Shown here: positions 34,634 through 56,325 of the stretch, in pieces
How the letters are laid out: every line of letters begins with the position of its first letter
Position numbering within the stretch: position 1 is the first letter of the stretch
NCBI RefSeq assembly: GCF_921293095.1
Contig: NC_060251.1
Location: 91,374,566 to 91,438,565, forward strand
From: Ischnura elegans
Taxonomy: Eukaryota; Arthropoda; Insecta; Odonata; Coenagrionidae
Reading direction: 5' to 3'
Length of the DNA stretch: 64,000 bases
Translations under genes and position numbers: made by a program
Notes under the pieces: model-generated
Seen by the model: only the letters and a program-made list of their open reading frames with translations
Database searches by the model: none
What the model was told of the DNA's origin: nothing

Positions 34634-35252
34634 CCCTGACAAAAATAAACTCCACCATGGTGGGTACAGGAAGGGTACAGGAAGGGTGGCATCCTTCATG
34701 GTGGGTAGTTACCCTTGCAGAACCCACGCCCTACCCACCATTAAGGGTAAGGGAAGGAGAGAAAAATCCTTCGTGTACCCTTCCTTGGAACTCCTTCCCT
34801 TACCATCCGTGTACCCTTCCTCTACCCACCATTAAGGGTAAGGGAAGGAGAGAAAAATCCTTCGTGTACCCTTCCTTGGAACTCCTTCCCTAACCATCCG
34901 TGTACCCTTCCTCTACCCACAATTAAGGGTAAGGGAAGAGGAGAAAAATCCTTCGTGTACCCTTCCTTGGAACTCCTTCCCTTACCATCCGTGTACCCTT
35001 CCTCTACCCACCATTAAGGGTAAGGGAAGGTGAGAAAAATCCTTCGTGTACCCTTCCTTGGAACTCCTTCCTTAACCATCCGTGTACCCTTCCTCTACCC
35101 ACAATTAAGGGTAAGGGAAGGAGAGAAAAATCCTTCGTGTACCCTTCCTTGGAACTCCTTCCCTTACCATCCGTGTACCCTTCCTCTACCCACCATTAAG
35201 GGTAAGGGAAGGAGAGAAAAATCCTTCGTGTACCCTTCCTTGGGACTTAGCA
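34634..35252. repeat. minisatellite A, 91-bp unit, about six copies
   Basis: The marker TTAAGGG begins at 34741, 34832, 34923, 35014, 35105 and 35196, a constant 91-bp step. Units 1, 3 and 5 carry CCCTTACC and end before CCATTAAG; units 2 and 4 carry TAACC and end before CAATTAAG. The array is therefore built of 182-bp dimers. Since 91 is not a multiple of 3, translated frames across it are meaningless. A leader at 34634-34740 (GGGTACAGGAAGGGT repeats) links it to minisatellite B. Confidence 0.95.
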
Positions 35253-38585: not shown

Positions 38586-38699
38586 GCCCTATAACTTTAG
38601 AAATCACTGTTGCAACTCATCCCCATTCGTTTAATTTAGTTTATTAGCGATTTTTTAAATTTTTATGTTAATTTATGGATTTTTAGTTTTTATTTTATC

Positions 38700-39203
38700 C
38701 TACCCTTCCTGTACCCTTCATTGAGGCTGGCCAAACCCTTCCCGTACCCTCCAGGAAGGAGAGGGCATACCCACCAATGTTCTAAAATACCCTTCGTGTA
38801 CCCTTGCTGAAGGGTACAGGAAGGGTACACTTATCCTTCCTGTACCCTTCATCGAGGCTGGCCTAACCCTTCCCGTACCCTCCAGGAAGGAGAGGGCGTA
38901 CCCACCAATGTTCTAAAATACCCTTCGTGTACCCTTGCTGAAGGGTACAGGAAGGGTACACCTATCCTTCGTGTACCCTTGCTGAAGGGTACAGGAAGGG
39001 TACACTTATCCTTCCTGTACCCTTCATCGAGGCTGGCCAAACCCTTCCCGTACCCTCCAGGAAGGAGAGAGCGTACCCACCAATGTTCTAAAATACCCTT
39101 CGTGTACCCTTGCTGAAGGGTACAGGAAGGGTACACCTATCCTTCCTGTACCCTCAATGGAGGGTAAACCTCTCCTTAATGGAGGAGTTTATTTTTATCA
39201 GGG
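38700..39203. repeat. minisatellite B, 131-bp unit, about 3.5 copies
   Basis: The marker CCTTCCTGTACCC begins at 38704, 38835, 39010 and 39141: steps of 131, 175 and 131. The 175 step is 131 plus a duplicated 44-bp sub-segment (GTGTACCCTTGCTGAAGGG...). Units contain GGGTACAGGAAGGGTA and its complement, so each can fold. The right edge (39179-39203) is the complement of the left edge of minisatellite A (34634-34658), 23 of 25 bases. Confidence 0.95.
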
Positions 39204-51440: not shown

Positions 51441-51451
51441 CGGTAGTTGTC

Positions 51452-51745
51452 ACATTGAAAATAACACTGTTTTGAAACAAAACATGTTCGTAGAAATCTC
51501 CAAGCAGTGAGCAAAAGTTACATTCACCTCACTATTCAAGCAGTTATAACGTTGAAAATAACACTACTTTGGCACAGAAGATGTTCGTAGAAATCTCCAA
51601 GCAGCAAGCAAAAGTAGTATTCACCTTGCAATACAAGAAGTTGTCACGTTGAAAAAATAATATTTTGCCACAAAAGATGTTCGTAGAAATCTCCAAGCGG
51701 CGAGCAACAGCTGTATTCACCATACAATACAAGCACAGGCAGTCC
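51452..51745. repeat. minisatellite C, about 98-bp unit, three copies
   Basis: GATGTTCGTAGAAATCTCCA (TATGTTCG in the first unit) recurs about every 98 bp at about 51485, 51581 and 51678. It is surrounded by conserved GTTGAAAATAACACT and GTATTCACC blocks. Units differ by 10-20 percent. It lies just upstream of the LTR retrotransposon, inside the host element. Confidence 0.9.
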
Positions 51746-52230
51746 TTAACGACGAATTTTCCGGCACCTATGAAGAAATGGAAGATGTTATTGCATATAA
51801 AAACATTGCGGACATTAAAAAACCTCCAAATTGTTCTAATTAAATAAATGAATGAGGGTCAACTTACAATCAACGTATCCATCTCCTACGGCCGTGGCTC
51901 TCTCTCATCTCAGACGGCTACAACGTTGTTGTTATACGGGTATTATACTTTGTTGTGCTGCATTGGAACATGGGCAAAACCCACTTGAAACACGCGCCCC
52001 CGGTGAAGAACGCGTCACCACGTGACCCTCCCCACTCCACCGGAACGCCCTCCTCATCTCCTCACCTTTCCCCACTCCAGCCGGCTGCCTTCCCCTCACA
52101 CCACGTGATTTCCCCACTCCCGCTTTTAATTGCGCACCTGCCCTCACACCCCGACCGCACACCTGCACAGCGAACGCGTCACCTCGTGACCAAGCGGAGC
52201 ACCCTCATTGGACGGAGGGAGGCCAGGGTT

Positions 52231-52240
52231 GGATATAAAA
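52231..52240 (+). promoter_or_regulatory. TATA box of the 5' LTR
   Basis: GGATATAAAA, preceded 25 bp upstream by ATTGG (an inverted CCAAT core). The same pair is present in the 3' LTR at 55219-55228. Confidence 0.7.
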
Positions 52241-52340
52241 GACGCTGCCCGGACCATGGAAGGCAGTCGGGGTTGAGGAGGCCGAAGCTAGGACTAAGAG
52301 CGAGCATATCCTCATAGTTCCTACCACAGGCCCTCAATCG

Positions 52341-52424
52341 GCCGGATGCCCCGTAAACTGCGGGTGGACCGGCGCCGCACTCTGCCGGATGCCCCGTAAA
52401 CTGCGGGTGGACCGGCGCCGCACT
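52341..52424. repeat. 43-bp-period tandem duplication in the LTR
   Basis: A 41-bp block starting GCCGGATGCCCCGTAAACTG occurs at 52341 and again at 52384, separated by CT. The second LTR has the same duplication at 55329 and 55372, so it predates the insertion. It lies just downstream of the predicted transcription start. Confidence 0.95.
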
Positions 52425-52709
52425 CGCACCCTCCGCGAGGAGCGCGCACGCTGTCCCAGAGGGTACTCTCCCCGGACACCGCCGCCCGCCTGAGGTCATC
52501 ACCCGCGGAAGCAGACGGAGGACGAGGCCCATGACCCCGCCGTAGCGCCTGGACCCGCCGGCAACGCCGGAACTCCGCCAGAGCTGTCGCGGATCCACGG
52601 AGATTCCCAGAGAGGCAGTTCCGGACAGAGCCGGACCCAGCCACGCGGAAGCAGCAGCCGCGGACCTCGCTTGTCCTTACAGACCCCCCCCCTGTAACTT
52701 TCTGATACT

Positions 52710-52715
52710 AATAAA
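52710..52715 (+). terminator. polyadenylation signal of the LTR
   Basis: AATAAA in the R/U5-side part of the LTR. The copy at 55698-55703 in the 3' LTR would serve the genomic transcript. Confidence 0.65.
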
Positions 52716-52769
52716 CGCACCTCCGGGTGTTTTAAAATTCCTATCCCGGCCTTTCCTTTACTAAACGCC

Positions 52770-55013
52770 ATGATCACCCGATCCCAGGTCTCCCTCGCAA
52801 CCGAGAGTGTCGCTGGAGCCGCGACAATTGGCGCCCAACTTATGGGGACATCGACCGGCAGCATGGATAGCAGCCGGGACCCACAGGATCCCCCGACTGA
52901 CAACGCCTGGCAAATCAACGCCTCCACCATGGATGTACAACCCATCGATGGAGCGCCCGTTACACCTACCATAGCTCTTCCGAGAGAGCTTCAACAAAAC
53001 TCGGTGGCGCCCAACCCATCTCGCACCCGCACAAGGGATCAATGCGAGGCTTCATCATGCACCAGAGTAGGGGAGCACCTGATTTCCTGTGCCAGCTGCC
53101 AACGATGGTTTCACCACCTCTGCCTTGGCTGGAGGGACGAAGCCAGGGACATTGAAGGGTTGCAGTTTATATGCGGAAGATGCAGTCAACGCCAACCGCA
53201 GAACAGCACTCCTCGGGCTGTGCCGGAGCCAGCCTACCGTCCCCCGTGGCCGGAGTTCTTCGGAGGAGAAGCAGAAGATCCGGAGACGTTCCTGCGAGGC
53301 ATGGAGACAAGGTTCCACGAGGATCAGATACCCACATCATGGTGGGTCTGTAGGGCGGAGCAACAACTCCAAGAGGATGCAAGAAGGTGGTGGACACCGT
53401 ACCGGGAATTTGCTTTCACATGGCACGAATTCAAGCAAAGGCTGAAGGGAAGGTTTGACTCAGCAGCACGGAGGGCCCAGATACAGGCAAAACTATTTGG
53501 AAGCATGCAGACACCGAAGGAGAGCGCTGAGATATTTATCCTTCGGAAGATCCAGCTGTTTCGGAGGCTGTTCCCAGATGGAGATAAGGAAACTTTCTTA
53601 CCCACGCTGACGGAACAACTCCTCCCAAGGATCAAGCAGATGTTCCGAGCCTGCCCACCGCAAAGCACTGAAGAACTCATACAGCTAGCCAGCGCCATTG
53701 AAGCTGACCAGGCCGAAGATGTCACCTACACACAACCTTCGAGACCACCAAAATGCAAGTACTGTCCAGGATACCACCTGCACCGAGACTGTCCCAGCAA
53801 ACCAGGCGGAAATGCAGAAAATCTCTTCCGGCCCACCCACCCGTCTATAGGGGCCACACAACCTGATGGAGCAGCTATAAACACCCCCAGAATCCAGGTG
53901 GAACTTGGCGGCGAAGTACTCCTCGCCCTCATCGATTCAGGAGCCGGAGTGAACCTAATAGCTGAACGATGCCTACCAGTGGCCTGCCAGAAACTAGTAC
54001 AAGGAGAAATCACTACACTACGAACGGTAAAGGGAGATACGTTCGTAACAACGGGGAACCTGCAGTCCACAGTCACCGTACAAAAGTTGCATCTACCAGT
54101 AACGTTGCACATCGCACGAGACATGGAGGAGGATCTCATCCTGGGACACCCCTGGCTTCGAAGCGCTAACGCCGTCATAGACTACTCACATCGGACAATC
54201 TCCTTCGGCACTACGGGCCGAGTCACTGCAGCCTGGACGCAACAATCAAAAGACGCTCTGACTCCGGATATGGACAGGATGGTCCCACCATCTATCCGTG
54301 TCGTGACACAGCACGCGGATTTATACGAAAGAGTCCAGCAAGCGCAACAAGATGATCCAGAGATCGCAGACATCAGGGAGAAACTACTGAATGCCCAGCA
54401 GACACCCTCAAGGACAAAAACACAGAAACGATTCCTTAAGAAATACAAGGACGACATCGATCATCTATGGTCCCGGCCGGGCCAAAAAGGACCTTGGAGG
54501 CTATGGGTCCCGCTAGCTTTGAGAAAGGAAGTTCTCCAACGCTACCACGATACGCCATTTGAAGGACACTCTGGAATCAAGGCGACCTACACGGCCCTAA
54601 CTCAAAAGTATCATTGGCGAGCAGCACTCTCCGACGTCCGCAAACACGTACAGAGCTGCTTGAATCGGGCCTGCAAGAAAGGAGGACAGCGAGCGAAGAC
54701 AAGCTCACTCCACGTCCACAACCCACTGAAGTCATTGGAGGACGTCGCTGAAGACCTAGCAGCATTCCCACGATCCCCACAGAGCCCACCACATCCACCC
54801 AGGAAGAAACCTTCCCCCGGCAGCGATGCCAAGTGCACAGTGCCAACAAAGGATATTCTATGGACCGACACCATACGGCCACAATGCCCCCACAGTGTTT
54901 CTTCTCGCGGGTTTTGCGCCATCAGGGGAGGGGTGGATTGTTGTGCTGCATTGGAACATGGGCAAAACCCACTTGAAACACGCGCCCCCGGTGAAGAACG
55001 CGTCACCACGTGA
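52770..55013 (+). CDS. Gag-protease-partial integrase polyprotein with PHD-like finger
   Basis: 747 codons, no break. Met1 lies in the 5' LTR; Met25 (52842), just after the primer-binding site, is the more natural start. Order: a PHD-like C4HC3 finger with C92, C97, C107, C110, H115, C118, C135, C138; a retrotransposon Gag domain about 157-315 (FFGGEAEDPETFL, W-rich, FDSAARRAQ); a zinc knuckle C329, C332, H336, C341 (CX2CX3HX4C); an aspartic protease with the catalytic triplet D389-S390-G391 and flap-side LILGHPWL (457-464); an integrase zinc-binding domain with H593, H600, C630 and C635 (CX4C rather than the usual CX2C). Reverse transcriptase and RNase H, normally between protease and integrase, are missing, as is the integrase DDE core. 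The C-terminal 100 residues are Pro/Lys-rich, and the frame ends inside the 3' LTR. Expected role: particle assembly and maturation in the cytoplasm. Confidence 0.93.
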   Translation: MITRSQVSLATESVAGAATIGAQLMGTSTGSMDSSRDPQDPPTDNAWQINASTMDVQPIDGAPVTPTIALPRELQQNSVAPNPSRTRTRDQCEASSCTRVGEHLISCASCQRWFHHLCLGWRDEARDIEGLQFICGRCSQRQPQNSTPRAVPEPAYRPPWPEFFGGEAEDPETFLRGMETRFHEDQIPTSWWVCRAEQQLQEDARRWWTPYREFAFTWHEFKQRLKGRFDSAARRAQIQAKLFGSMQTPKESAEIFILRKIQLFRRLFPDGDKETFLPTLTEQLLPRIKQMFRACPPQSTEELIQLASAIEADQAEDVTYTQPSRPPKCKYCPGYHLHRDCPSKPGGNAENLFRPTHPSIGATQPDGAAINTPRIQVELGGEVLLALIDSGAGVNLIAERCLPVACQKLVQGEITTLRTVKGDTFVTTGNLQSTVTVQKLHLPVTLHIARDMEEDLILGHPWLRSANAVIDYSHRTISFGTTGRVTAAWTQQSKDALTPDMDRMVPPSIRVVTQHADLYERVQQAQQDDPEIADIREKLLNAQQTPSRTKTQKRFLKKYKDDIDHLWSRPGQKGPWRLWVPLALRKEVLQRYHDTPFEGHSGIKATYTALTQKYHWRAALSDVRKHVQSCLNRACKKGGQRAKTSSLHVHNPLKSLEDVAEDLAAFPRSPQSPPHPPRKKPSPGSDAKCTVPTKDILWTDTIRPQCPHSVSSRGFCAIRGGVDCCAALEHGQNPLETRAPGEERVTT
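52829..52839 (+). promoter_or_regulatory. primer-binding site
   Basis: TGGCGCCCAAC starts two bases after the LTR end and has the usual TGG start, complementary to a tRNA CCA end. I could not assign the tRNA species from the sequence. Confidence 0.8.
54924..54937 (+). promoter_or_regulatory. polypurine tract
   Basis: AGGGGAGGGGTGGA immediately before the 3' LTR, the expected primer for plus-strand DNA synthesis. It also encodes part of the open frame. Confidence 0.8.
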
Positions 55014-55814
55014 CCCTCCCCACTCCACCGGAACGCCCTCCTCATCTCCTCACCTTTCCCCACTCCAGCCGGCTGCCTTCCCCTCACACCACGTGATTTC
55101 CCCACTCCCGCTTTTAATTGCGCACCTGCCCTCACACCCCGACCGCACACCTGCACAGCGAACGCGTCACCTCGTGACCAAGCGGAGCACCCTCATTGGA
55201 CGGAGGGAGGCCAGGGTTGGATATAAAAGACGCTGCCCGGACCATGGAAGGCAGTCGGGGTTGAGGAGGCCGAAGCTAGGACTAAGAGCGAGCATATCCT
55301 CATAGTTCCTACCACAGGCCCTCAATCGGCCGGATGCCCCGTAAACTGCGGGTGGACCGGCGCCGCACTCTGCCGGATGCCCCGTAAACTGCGGGTGGAC
55401 CGGCGCCGCACTCGCACCCTCCGCGAGGAGCGCGCACGCTGTCCCAGAGGGTACTCTCCCCGGACACCGCCGCCCGCCTGAGGTCATCACCCGCGGAAGC
55501 AGACGGAGGACGAGGCCCATGACCCCGCCGTAGCGCCTGGACCCGCCGGCAACGCCGGAACTCCGCCAGAGCTGTCGCGGATCCACGGAGATTCCCAGAG
55601 AGGCAGTTCCGGACAGAGCCGGACCCAGCCACGCGGAAGCAGCAGCCGCGGACCTCGCTTGTCCTTACAGACCCCCCCCCTGTAACTTTCTGATACTAAT
55701 AAACGCACCTCCGGGTGTTTTAAAATTCCTATCCCGGCCTTTCCTTTACTAAACGCCATGATCACCCGATCCCAGGTCTCCCTCGCAACCGAGAGTGTCG
55801 CTGGAGCCGCGACA
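54939..55814 (+). repeat. 3' LTR
   Basis: 876 bp, offset by 2988 bp from the 5' LTR. By eye no difference was found, and frames inside both translate identically. TATA at 55219-55228, AATAAA at 55698-55703. Followed by ACTT (55815-55818). Confidence 0.95.
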
Positions 55815-56325
55815 ACTTTTTTTGTTCAACTGCTCCAGTCGGCTCCAGTTTGGTATTTTATACGCTTACTCAGACATTAATATTATAAATAACACAAAAT
55901 ATGATAGCTTCCGAGTTTCTATCGTCGGATATTTTGTTTTTAAAACGCCAGCTCGACCCGAAAAATGTAAACAGACGTCCGCCATTAGGGGGTCGGTATC
56001 TCACCACCGGGGTAGCTGGCCGTGGTATCATACCGACCCCTAAGCCGTGGTATGATACCGACCGGTGGCCACTCGTAATCGCTCGGGGGCGGTAACCGCG
56101 CTTCGGGGCGGTATGATACCGCAGGCGGTATCTCACCGCATGCGGTAAGCCGTTCGTAATAGGCCTCTTGATCCCCATGCATTCGAGTGCCAGCCAAGAA
56201 GACAGCGTTTTCTTCTACTGTCGGCGTCAAAATGATGTGCCGCTGTACTTTGCAAATTTATGTCCTGGCTTCACTACATGCTATAATAATGAACTATACG
56301 TCATTTTAAAGGAAATTTTATCCTA

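What the first reader, a model, noticed from the sequence alone, without database searches (positions are those of the whole stretch)
51951..55814. Recently inserted non-autonomous LTR element that kept its reading frame through the loss of reverse transcriptase
Both 876-bp LTRs look identical, with an intact ACTT duplication, yet the 2.1-kb interior lacks reverse transcriptase, RNase H and the integrase core. The deletion joins the protease to the integrase zinc-binding domain in frame, giving 747 codons. Keeping a Gag-protease frame while losing polymerase suggests selection for protein supply in cis, unlike the usual gene-free LARD/TRIM elements and closer to TR-GAG or BARE2-like parasites.
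Basis: partly seen in the sequence, partly recalled or inferred. Interest (0 to 1): 0.75.

Follow-up and report, generated by a model that had tools for sequence, protein, structure and literature searches.

The report
RT-less retroelement keeping its own capsid gene
This is a young family of jumping elements in an arthropod genome that has lost its copying enzyme but still keeps, under natural selection, a gene for its own capsid and protease, while a rarer full-length relative appears to supply the missing enzymes.

Summary
The window element (identical 876-bp LTRs, ACTT duplication, 747-codon ORF) is one of 41 full-length capsid-protease matches in a 1.72-Gb arthropod genome; 40 have no stop. 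All 33 copies compared share the junction; LTR pairs differ by 0-3 substitutions. The frame is under purifying selection: pN/pS 0.33, or 0.46 corrected by the LTR spectrum, p=4e-8. LTRs show 39 indel intervals, 31 frame-changing; the Gag-protease core shows almost none.

The likely helper is six copies with the same PBS and polypurine tract, a 4.4-kb interior, 85% identical Gag, plus RT, RNase H and integrase core.

The short element lacks these sites and has Gag fused to protease, so its frame was probably re-made rather than simply kept.

Best reading: a Ty3/gypsy-type satellite making Gag-protease used mainly in cis and borrowing Pol in trans, closest in logic to mouse IAP IΔ1 and maize Zeon/Cinful.

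The parts
51947..51950 (.). ACTT target-site duplication, left
   Evidence: read directly; script
51951..52826 (+). 5' LTR, TG...CA, 876 bp, with a 43-bp tandem duplication at 52341-52425
   Evidence: identical to 3' LTR; tandem repeat
52829..52839 (+). primer-binding site core TGGCGCCCAAC, 2 nt after the LTR
   Evidence: read directly; same in the three helper copies fetched and in the 33 copies compared. A tRNA-Lys assignment is recalled, not tested
52770..55013 (+). single ORF, 747 codons: PHD - capsid - zinc knuckle - protease - linker - integrase H2C2 - tail; starts in the 5' LTR, stops in the 3' LTR
53058..53183 (+). PHD finger (codons 97-138); the ten C/H positions at codons 92-138 unchanged in 33 of 33 copies
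   Evidence: Pfam PF00628 E=2e-5
53286..53699 (+). Ty3-type capsid (codons about 173-310)
   Evidence: Pfam PF03732 E=1.4e-4 and PF19259 E=4.9e-4, both under their curated cut-offs
53754..53792 (+). CCHC zinc knuckle C-X2-C-X3-H-X4-C (codons 329-341)
   Evidence: read directly; C/H pattern intact in 32 of 33 copies
53793..53891 (+). Gag-protease fusion stretch. The helper has two slippery heptamers and a change of frame here; the short element has neither
53892..54161 (+). aspartic protease (codons 375-464), active site LIDSGAGVN
   Evidence: Pfam PF13975 E=1.3e-6, PF00077; exact motif in 31 of 33 copies
54239..54246 (+). junction: 1,448 bp of the helper (RT/RNase H) absent; 8 nt unmatched
   Evidence: BLAST against L060-L062
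54247..54758 (+). integrase N-terminal block with H2C2 zinc domain (Pfam 54507-54665); about 80% identical to the helper
54828..54938 (+). 3' terminal interior incl. polypurine tract, 92-94% identical to three helper copies; integrase core lost between 54758 and here
54924..54937 (+). polypurine tract AGGGGAGGGGTGGA
   Evidence: read directly; genome-wide pattern
54939..55814 (+). 3' LTR, 876 bp
55815..55818 (.). ACTT target-site duplication, right

Best explanation
A non-autonomous Ty3/gypsy-type LTR retrotransposon family. It is transcribed from its own LTRs and translates a PHD-Gag-protease polyprotein (with a leftover integrase zinc domain) from one fused frame. That protein assembles around, and is processed on, preferentially the RNA that encoded it (cis preference). 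Reverse transcriptase, RNase H and catalytic integrase arrive in trans from the co-assembling Gag-Pol of a rarer full-length helper family that shares the PBS, the polypurine tract and about 85% of Gag. Shown here: structure, family, target-site duplications, youth, shared junction, purifying selection on the frame, recombination between copies, and one candidate helper. Inferred: transcription, translation, particle co-assembly, cis preference and trans supply of Pol.
For: Family: 41 full-length capsid-protease matches of the short type (window included), 40 without a stop, among 121 scored of 736 candidates; the ranking then falls to the helper, fragments and about 30%-identical families. 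Of 49 LTR-end+PBS sites, 37 pair with a polypurine-tract+LTR site 1.9-2.3 kb away, 6 at 4424-4426 bp, 2 at other distances, 4 with none. Youth: 33 copies; LTR substitutions 0 in 17, 1 in 12, 2 in 3, 3 in 1; seven of these pairs also have gaps or an incomplete LTR beyond cutting, and 13 of the 33 comparisons use an incomplete 3' LTR. Selection: pN/pS over codons 19-480 is 0.33 in 496 pairs of 32 copies (capsid 0.24, protease 0.42); 116 nonsynonymous: 90 synonymous variants against 2.83:1 expected from the LTR spectrum, p=3.6e-8; about 8 stop variants expected, none in the aligned open frames. Indels: 39 intervals in the LTR alignment (rows 655-898 bases), 31 not multiples of 3, against one 6-bp indel shared by 15 copies in 1,683 ORF columns plus three small gaps at the N-terminal edge of one copy. 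Helper: L062 carries PHD, gag, RVT_1, RNase H, H2C2 and rve; the RT search (150 scored of 2655 candidates) finds six copies at 98-100%, then an 89% fragment, then 57% and less. Recombination: four-gamete conflicts rise from 0.16 to 0.90 with distance; 0 of 1000 permutations match. Short element and helper are most alike at the ends of the interior: 92-95% in the first 300 bases and 92-94% in the last 113.
Against: No expression, protein or mobility data. Variant sites were treated as independent. Only open frames were aligned, and L021 (length change beside the PBS) was left out of the counts. Much of the divergence from the helper (dS 0.37-0.82 in capsid, protease and H2C2 block; six of 33 copies tested) probably predates loss of RT, so only within-family variation speaks to selection after it. 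The integrase zinc domain keeps its H/C positions in 30 of 33 copies by eye, and its N:S ratio does not differ significantly from the core (Fisher p=0.29), so it is not a clean neutral control. The PHD block (codons 19-150) and the linker (481-579) alone are borderline (p=0.077 and 0.051). Seven of the 41 copies were not fetched and are known only from stop counts.
Confidence: 0.72

Rival explanations
1. Youth only: a recent burst from one or a few source copies that happened to have an open frame; no selection on the protein.
For: LTR pairs are nearly identical, so copies have had little time to decay after insertion.
Against: Copies differ from the window by up to about 6% in 1 kb of Gag-protease DNA while LTR pairs hardly differ, so the variation arose mostly in transmitted lineages; there it is biased to synonymous changes, with no stops and almost no frame-changing indels in the core. 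LTRs of the same copies diverge to about 86% from the window's, gaps counted.
Confidence: 0.1
2. Division of labour rather than parasitism: the short element is the main source of Gag-protease for both families and the helper mainly supplies Pol, as proposed for maize Zeon/Cinful.
For: 41 short copies against 6 helper copies; the helper has Pol in another frame than Gag in 5 of 6 copies; 85% similar Gag DNA; shared PBS and polypurine tract.
Against: The helper retains its own Gag: over the matched stretch it is open in 3 of the 5 split-frame copies, plus the one with a single frame. If Gag were freely shared, the frame of individual short copies should decay; 40 of 41 being open points to cis benefit.
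Confidence: 0.15
3. The coding sequence is retained for RNA signals (packaging, dimerisation), not protein.
For: The 5' part is the most similar to the helper (92-95% in the first 300 bases), with low dS in the PHD block (0.16-0.20).
Against: The bias towards synonymous change across capsid and protease, and indels that respect the frame, are not what RNA constraint predicts.
Confidence: 0.03

Closest known systems
Mouse IAP IΔ1 (ERV-K)
   Same: Internal deletion gives one gag-pol fusion ORF; non-autonomous; [quoted passage not shown] accounts for most new IAP insertions; fusion protein reported to act in cis (passages of PMC6466679)
   Different: Mammalian ERV; there a 1.9-kb deletion removes part of gag and pol, whereas here Gag and protease are whole, RT, RNase H and the integrase core are gone, and the Gag-protease fusion is a change separate from the deletions
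Maize Zeon / Cinful
   Same: A pair in which one codes for GAG and the other for polyprotein domains (passages of PMC8547701)
   Different: Plant, very high copy number, GAG only; here Gag plus protease and dozens of copies
TR-GAG elements
   Same: Short LTR element with one GAG ORF and a likely autonomous relative; shown to transpose in Arabidopsis ddm1 (passages of PMC8704663)
   Different: Codes for GAG alone and is described from plants; this one adds PHD, protease and an integrase zinc domain
BARE2
   Same: Non-autonomous element using a full-length relative
   Different: As recalled (no call), BARE2 is Gag-defective and keeps pol: the opposite dependence
LARD / TRIM
   Same: Non-autonomous LTR elements
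   Different: No coding capacity (recalled); here a selected ORF of 727-801 codons in 30 of 33 copies

Membership tests
Ty3/gypsy (Metaviridae) LTR retrotransposon | Pol order protease-RT-RNase H-integrase in the full-length partner | tested here: met
   RVT_1, RT_RNaseH, Integrase_H2C2, rve in that order in L062; the protease stretch matches the window's protease. The Pfam pieces were cut through the protease, so no protease model was hit there
Ty3/gypsy (Metaviridae) LTR retrotransposon | RT groups with Ty3/gypsy in a tree | not tested
   no tree built
Ty3/gypsy (Metaviridae) LTR retrotransposon | TG...CA LTRs, PBS, polypurine tract, short fixed duplication | tested here: met
   16 of 16 elements with both ends held have 4-bp duplications, two of them one insertion duplicated later
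Non-autonomous, trans-mobilised LTR element | No RT in the element; related RT source in the genome with the same priming signals | tested here: met
Non-autonomous, trans-mobilised LTR element | Mobilisation by that source demonstrated | not testable with these tools
   needs experiment
TR-GAG | Single ORF coding for GAG only | tested here: not met
   protease and integrase H2C2 also present
BARE2-like | Gag-defective, pol-bearing | tested here: not met
   Gag open and selected, RT absent
LARD / TRIM | No coding capacity | tested here: not met
IAP IΔ1-like gag-pol fusion acting in cis (as a mechanism, not kinship) | One fused ORF spanning Gag and Pol-derived parts | tested here: met
IAP IΔ1-like gag-pol fusion acting in cis (as a mechanism, not kinship) | Protein works in cis | tested here: inconclusive
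   selection on individual frames suggests it; no assay

The most novel reading that the evidence does not exclude
The short element is a satellite that has re-engineered expression: by losing the -1 frameshift and fusing Gag to protease it makes only a capsid-protease polyprotein. It dominates particle assembly, captures the few Pol molecules made by six helper copies, and may hold the helper at low copy number. In effect it is a capsid-bearing satellite under selection to control its helper's particles.
Probability: 0.25. Interest if true: 0.78.

Novelty: new variant of a known kind. Interest (0 to 1): 0.6.

Why it matters
Whether non-autonomous LTR elements keep Gag because Gag acts in cis, or merely by inertia, is hard to test. 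Here a young, nearly complete set of copies in one genome, a single candidate helper and clear selection on the frame make it directly testable. The fused Gag-protease frame, set against a split-frame helper, also asks how a retroelement copes without frameshift control of protease dose.

Tried and rejected
Rejected: a one-off deletion (33 compared copies share the junction). An autonomous copy among the close Gag relatives (none in the 30 loci held of 40 scored hits of 50 candidates). Assembly artefact (4-bp duplications in 16 of 16). A folded RNA stimulator after the slippery sites: the two stretches folded, from one helper copy, are no better than shuffles (z 0.50 and -0.73), so the frameshift idea rests on heptamers and frame layout only. 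The 89% RT fragment on C3 as a relic of the short element's parent: the fetched stretch has no match to the short interior. L059 (PBS-like match on C2) shows no match to the window LTR or interior at E 1e-5, nor to L060 at 1e-20. Telomere repeats to name the host: 1 and 2 hits only. The host is taken as an arthropod from its many cuticle-type Chitin_bind_4 matches (150 scored of 347 candidates; 0 of 14 control genomes); it is not named. Ten window ORFs outside the element gave no Pfam match at 0.01, and the window has no Rfam match and no tRNA.

Dropped rows: L021 from N:S and indel counts; L021, L031, L019 and L013 from the four-gamete test (29 copies used); L013 and L019 from the tail counts; L037 (contig end) from the 33; seven of the 41 copies not fetched. 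L026 and L027 are one insertion duplicated with its flanks, so the 33 are at most 32 independent insertions.
Full report
OBSERVATION. The element at 51951-55814 is as described. The two 876-bp LTRs are identical, start TG and end CA, and are flanked by ACTT. A primer-binding site core (TGGCGCCCAAC) begins after two bases and a polypurine tract precedes the 3' LTR. The 747-codon ORF (52770-55013) starts within the 5' LTR and ends within the 3' LTR. Pfam finds a PHD finger, an aspartic protease and an integrase H2C2 domain above cut-off, and Retrotrans_gag/Ty3_capsid matches that are significant but under cut-off; there is no RT, RNase H or rve.

IT IS A FAMILY. The genome has 1.72 Gb in 110 contigs. 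An LTR search scored 40 of 204 candidates. I fetched the surroundings of 20 further places: with the window, 16 elements with both ends and five places with a single LTR and no interior match. All 16 have 4-bp duplications (flanks compared by eye), and the five single LTRs do too. One of the 16, L019, has lost the end of its interior and the start of its 3' LTR. A search with 1 kb of Gag-protease DNA scored 40 of 50 candidates; 30 loci were held, and 17 of them were further copies that could be compared. The 33 copies have interiors of 1.7-2.2 kb with the same protease-to-integrase junction. LTR substitutions within a pair number 0 in 17, 1 in 12, 2 in 3 and 3 in 1; six pairs also differ by gaps (27 gap positions in L056), and 13 of 33 comparisons use an incomplete 3' LTR. 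A protein search with codons 151-480 gives the fullest census: 121 scored of 736 candidates; 41 full-length matches of the short type, window included, of which 40 have no stop and one has a single TGA; then the six helper copies; then fragments, among them one broken copy on C11 and a 68-74% fragment pair on C1; then about 30%-identical and weaker families. Of the 41, 33 were compared in full, one (L037) is cut by a contig end and seven were not fetched.

SELECTION. Over codons 19-480, pairwise pN/pS is 0.33 (496 pairs from 32 copies, L021 left out): PHD block 0.35, capsid 0.24, protease 0.42, post-protease linker 0.28, H2C2 0.82. Counting each variant once and correcting for the mutation spectrum of the LTRs, there are 116 nonsynonymous and 90 synonymous variants where 2.83:1 is expected; ratio 0.46, p=3.6e-8. 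By domain the corrected ratios are 0.62 (codons 19-150, p=0.077), 0.37 (capsid, p=3e-5), 0.46 (protease, p=0.001), 0.54 (linker, p=0.051) and 0.76 (H2C2, p=0.25). Private variants also show a deficit (0.46, against 0.35 for shared ones). About eight stop variants would be expected; none can appear in the alignment because the longest open frames were aligned, but those frames run through the protease in all 33 copies. The LTR alignment (rows 655-898 bases) has 39 distinct gap intervals, 31 not multiples of three; the ORF over codons 19-579 (1,683 columns) has one 6-bp gap shared by 15 copies and three small gaps at the N-terminal edge of one copy, which the script did not name, probably L031. 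Two of 33 copies (L021, L031) do not have the LTR-encoded start in frame with the rest, and both differ in length near the PBS; four of 33 (L013, L019, L048, L051) lose the tail or its frame. The tail thus tolerates more than the core, but the H2C2 block itself does not differ significantly from the core in N:S (p=0.29). The larger tail block does (p=0.004), though that count includes frame-changed tails and is unsafe.

THE HELPER. Exact matches to the LTR end plus PBS occur 49 times, and to polypurine tract plus LTR start 48 times. Pairing gives 37 short elements, six at 4424-4426 bp, two at other distances and four unpaired. Three of the six long ones were fetched in pieces, and short overlap pieces of the other three. 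The interior is 85% identical to window interior 1-1412; 1,448 bp absent from the window follow, then about 80% identity to interior 1421-1932. L062, searched in four pieces, carries PHD, gag, RVT_1, RNase H, H2C2 and rve; L060 and L061 are over 99% identical to it or to each other. Helper LTRs are longer than the pieces fetched, hold internal repeats, are 99.9-100% alike between ends over 526-816 bp, and match the window LTR in parts at 73-82%; the last 113 bp before the LTR match at 92-94%. The RT search (150 scored of 2655 candidates) shows six copies at 98-100%, one 89% fragment with a stop, and then other families at 57% or less. So among the scored candidates no other RT source is comparably close.

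FRAMES. In five of six helper copies Gag ends shortly after the zinc knuckle and protease/Pol is open in the -1 frame with overlap. Two heptamers of the X XXY YYZ type (GGGAAAT, GGGAAAC) lie in the Gag frame before the Gag stop in 5 of 5; they sit in a small repeat, so they are not independent. One helper copy has a single frame through a small indel that also disrupts the knuckle. In 33 of 33 short copies codons 300-419 hold no such heptamer, and Gag runs into protease in one frame. The one copy read of the nearest outgroup family (57% in RT) also has Gag and Pol in different frames. I therefore infer that the fusion is derived in the short element. No RNA structure better than shuffles was found near the heptamers. 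Not every helper copy is intact: over the stretches matched, Gag is interrupted in two of the five split-frame copies, and two copies have shortened Pol frames.

HISTORY. Between six of the 33 short copies and L060, dS is 0.37-0.82 in capsid, protease and the H2C2 block with ratios of 0.09-0.27, but dS is only 0.16-0.20 in the PHD block. The low ratio in the H2C2 block (0.12-0.13) suggests that most of this divergence predates loss of RT, when integrase was still in use. Similarity is highest at both ends of the interior (92-95% in the first 300 bases, 79-92% from base 500 to 1900), as expected if ends recombine between co-packaged RNAs or are held by shared signals. Within the family, four-gamete conflicts (82 sites, 29 copies) rise from 16% of site pairs within 200 bp to 90% at 1.2-1.4 kb, and neighbouring sites are more compatible than in any of 1000 permutations. 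Copies are thus mosaics, as template switching between two packaged RNAs would make.

MECHANISM. Shown: a young, RT-less family whose Gag-protease frame is selected, and one candidate helper with matching priming signals. Inferred: LTR-driven transcription, translation of the fused polyprotein, co-assembly with helper Gag-Pol, and preference of the protein for its own RNA. Cis preference is the simplest reason why 40 of 41 copies are open, since freely shared Gag would let individual copies decay.

COMPARISON. Mouse IAP IΔ1 has a deletion-made gag-pol fusion ORF, is non-autonomous, dominates new IAP insertions, and its fusion protein is reported to function in cis (PMC6466679, passages). Maize Zeon (GAG) and Cinful (polyprotein) are described as a system that approaches mutualism (PMC8547701, passages). 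TR-GAG elements code for GAG alone and have been seen to transpose in Arabidopsis ddm1 (PMC8704663, passages).

VERDICT. New variant of a known kind, interest 0.6.

Noticed in passing
window 52341-52425 and 55329-55413: A perfect 43-bp tandem duplication inside each LTR; the matched 5' LTR length varies from 712 to 919 bp among copies.
   Followed up: partly
window 51445-51733: Three copies of a 97-bp tandem repeat about 220 bp upstream of the insertion.
   Followed up: no
window 34731-35247 and 38699-39154: Tandem arrays of 91-bp and about 131/175-bp units sharing the word CCTTCGTGTACCCTT.
   Followed up: no
L031 and L034, first 20 interior bases: The PBS continues GTGGGG instead of TTACGGG; this resembles copying of more of a tRNA-Lys primer (tRNA match recalled, not tested).
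   Followed up: no
G000:C6 29.36-29.57 Mb: A very regular array of chitin-binding cuticle-type genes, mostly at about 2.4-2.6 kb spacing, dozens of copies with nearly the same score.
   Followed up: no
G000:C6:91440698-91441288: Another RT (44% to the helper RT, open frame 1192 aa, several copies) begins about 2.1 kb beyond the window's right end.
   Followed up: no
L026 and L027 (C4, about 61 kb apart): The same insertion with identical 60-bp flanks: a duplication of the locus after insertion.
   Followed up: yes
G000:C4:22199184-22204447: A short-type copy with about 3 kb extra between PBS and gag, and the only one of 41 full-length matches with a stop in capsid-protease.
   Followed up: partly
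L015; helper pieces L069-L071: L015 has LIDLG at the protease site where 32 of 33 have LIDSG; three helper copies each show a single change at this motif.
   Followed up: no
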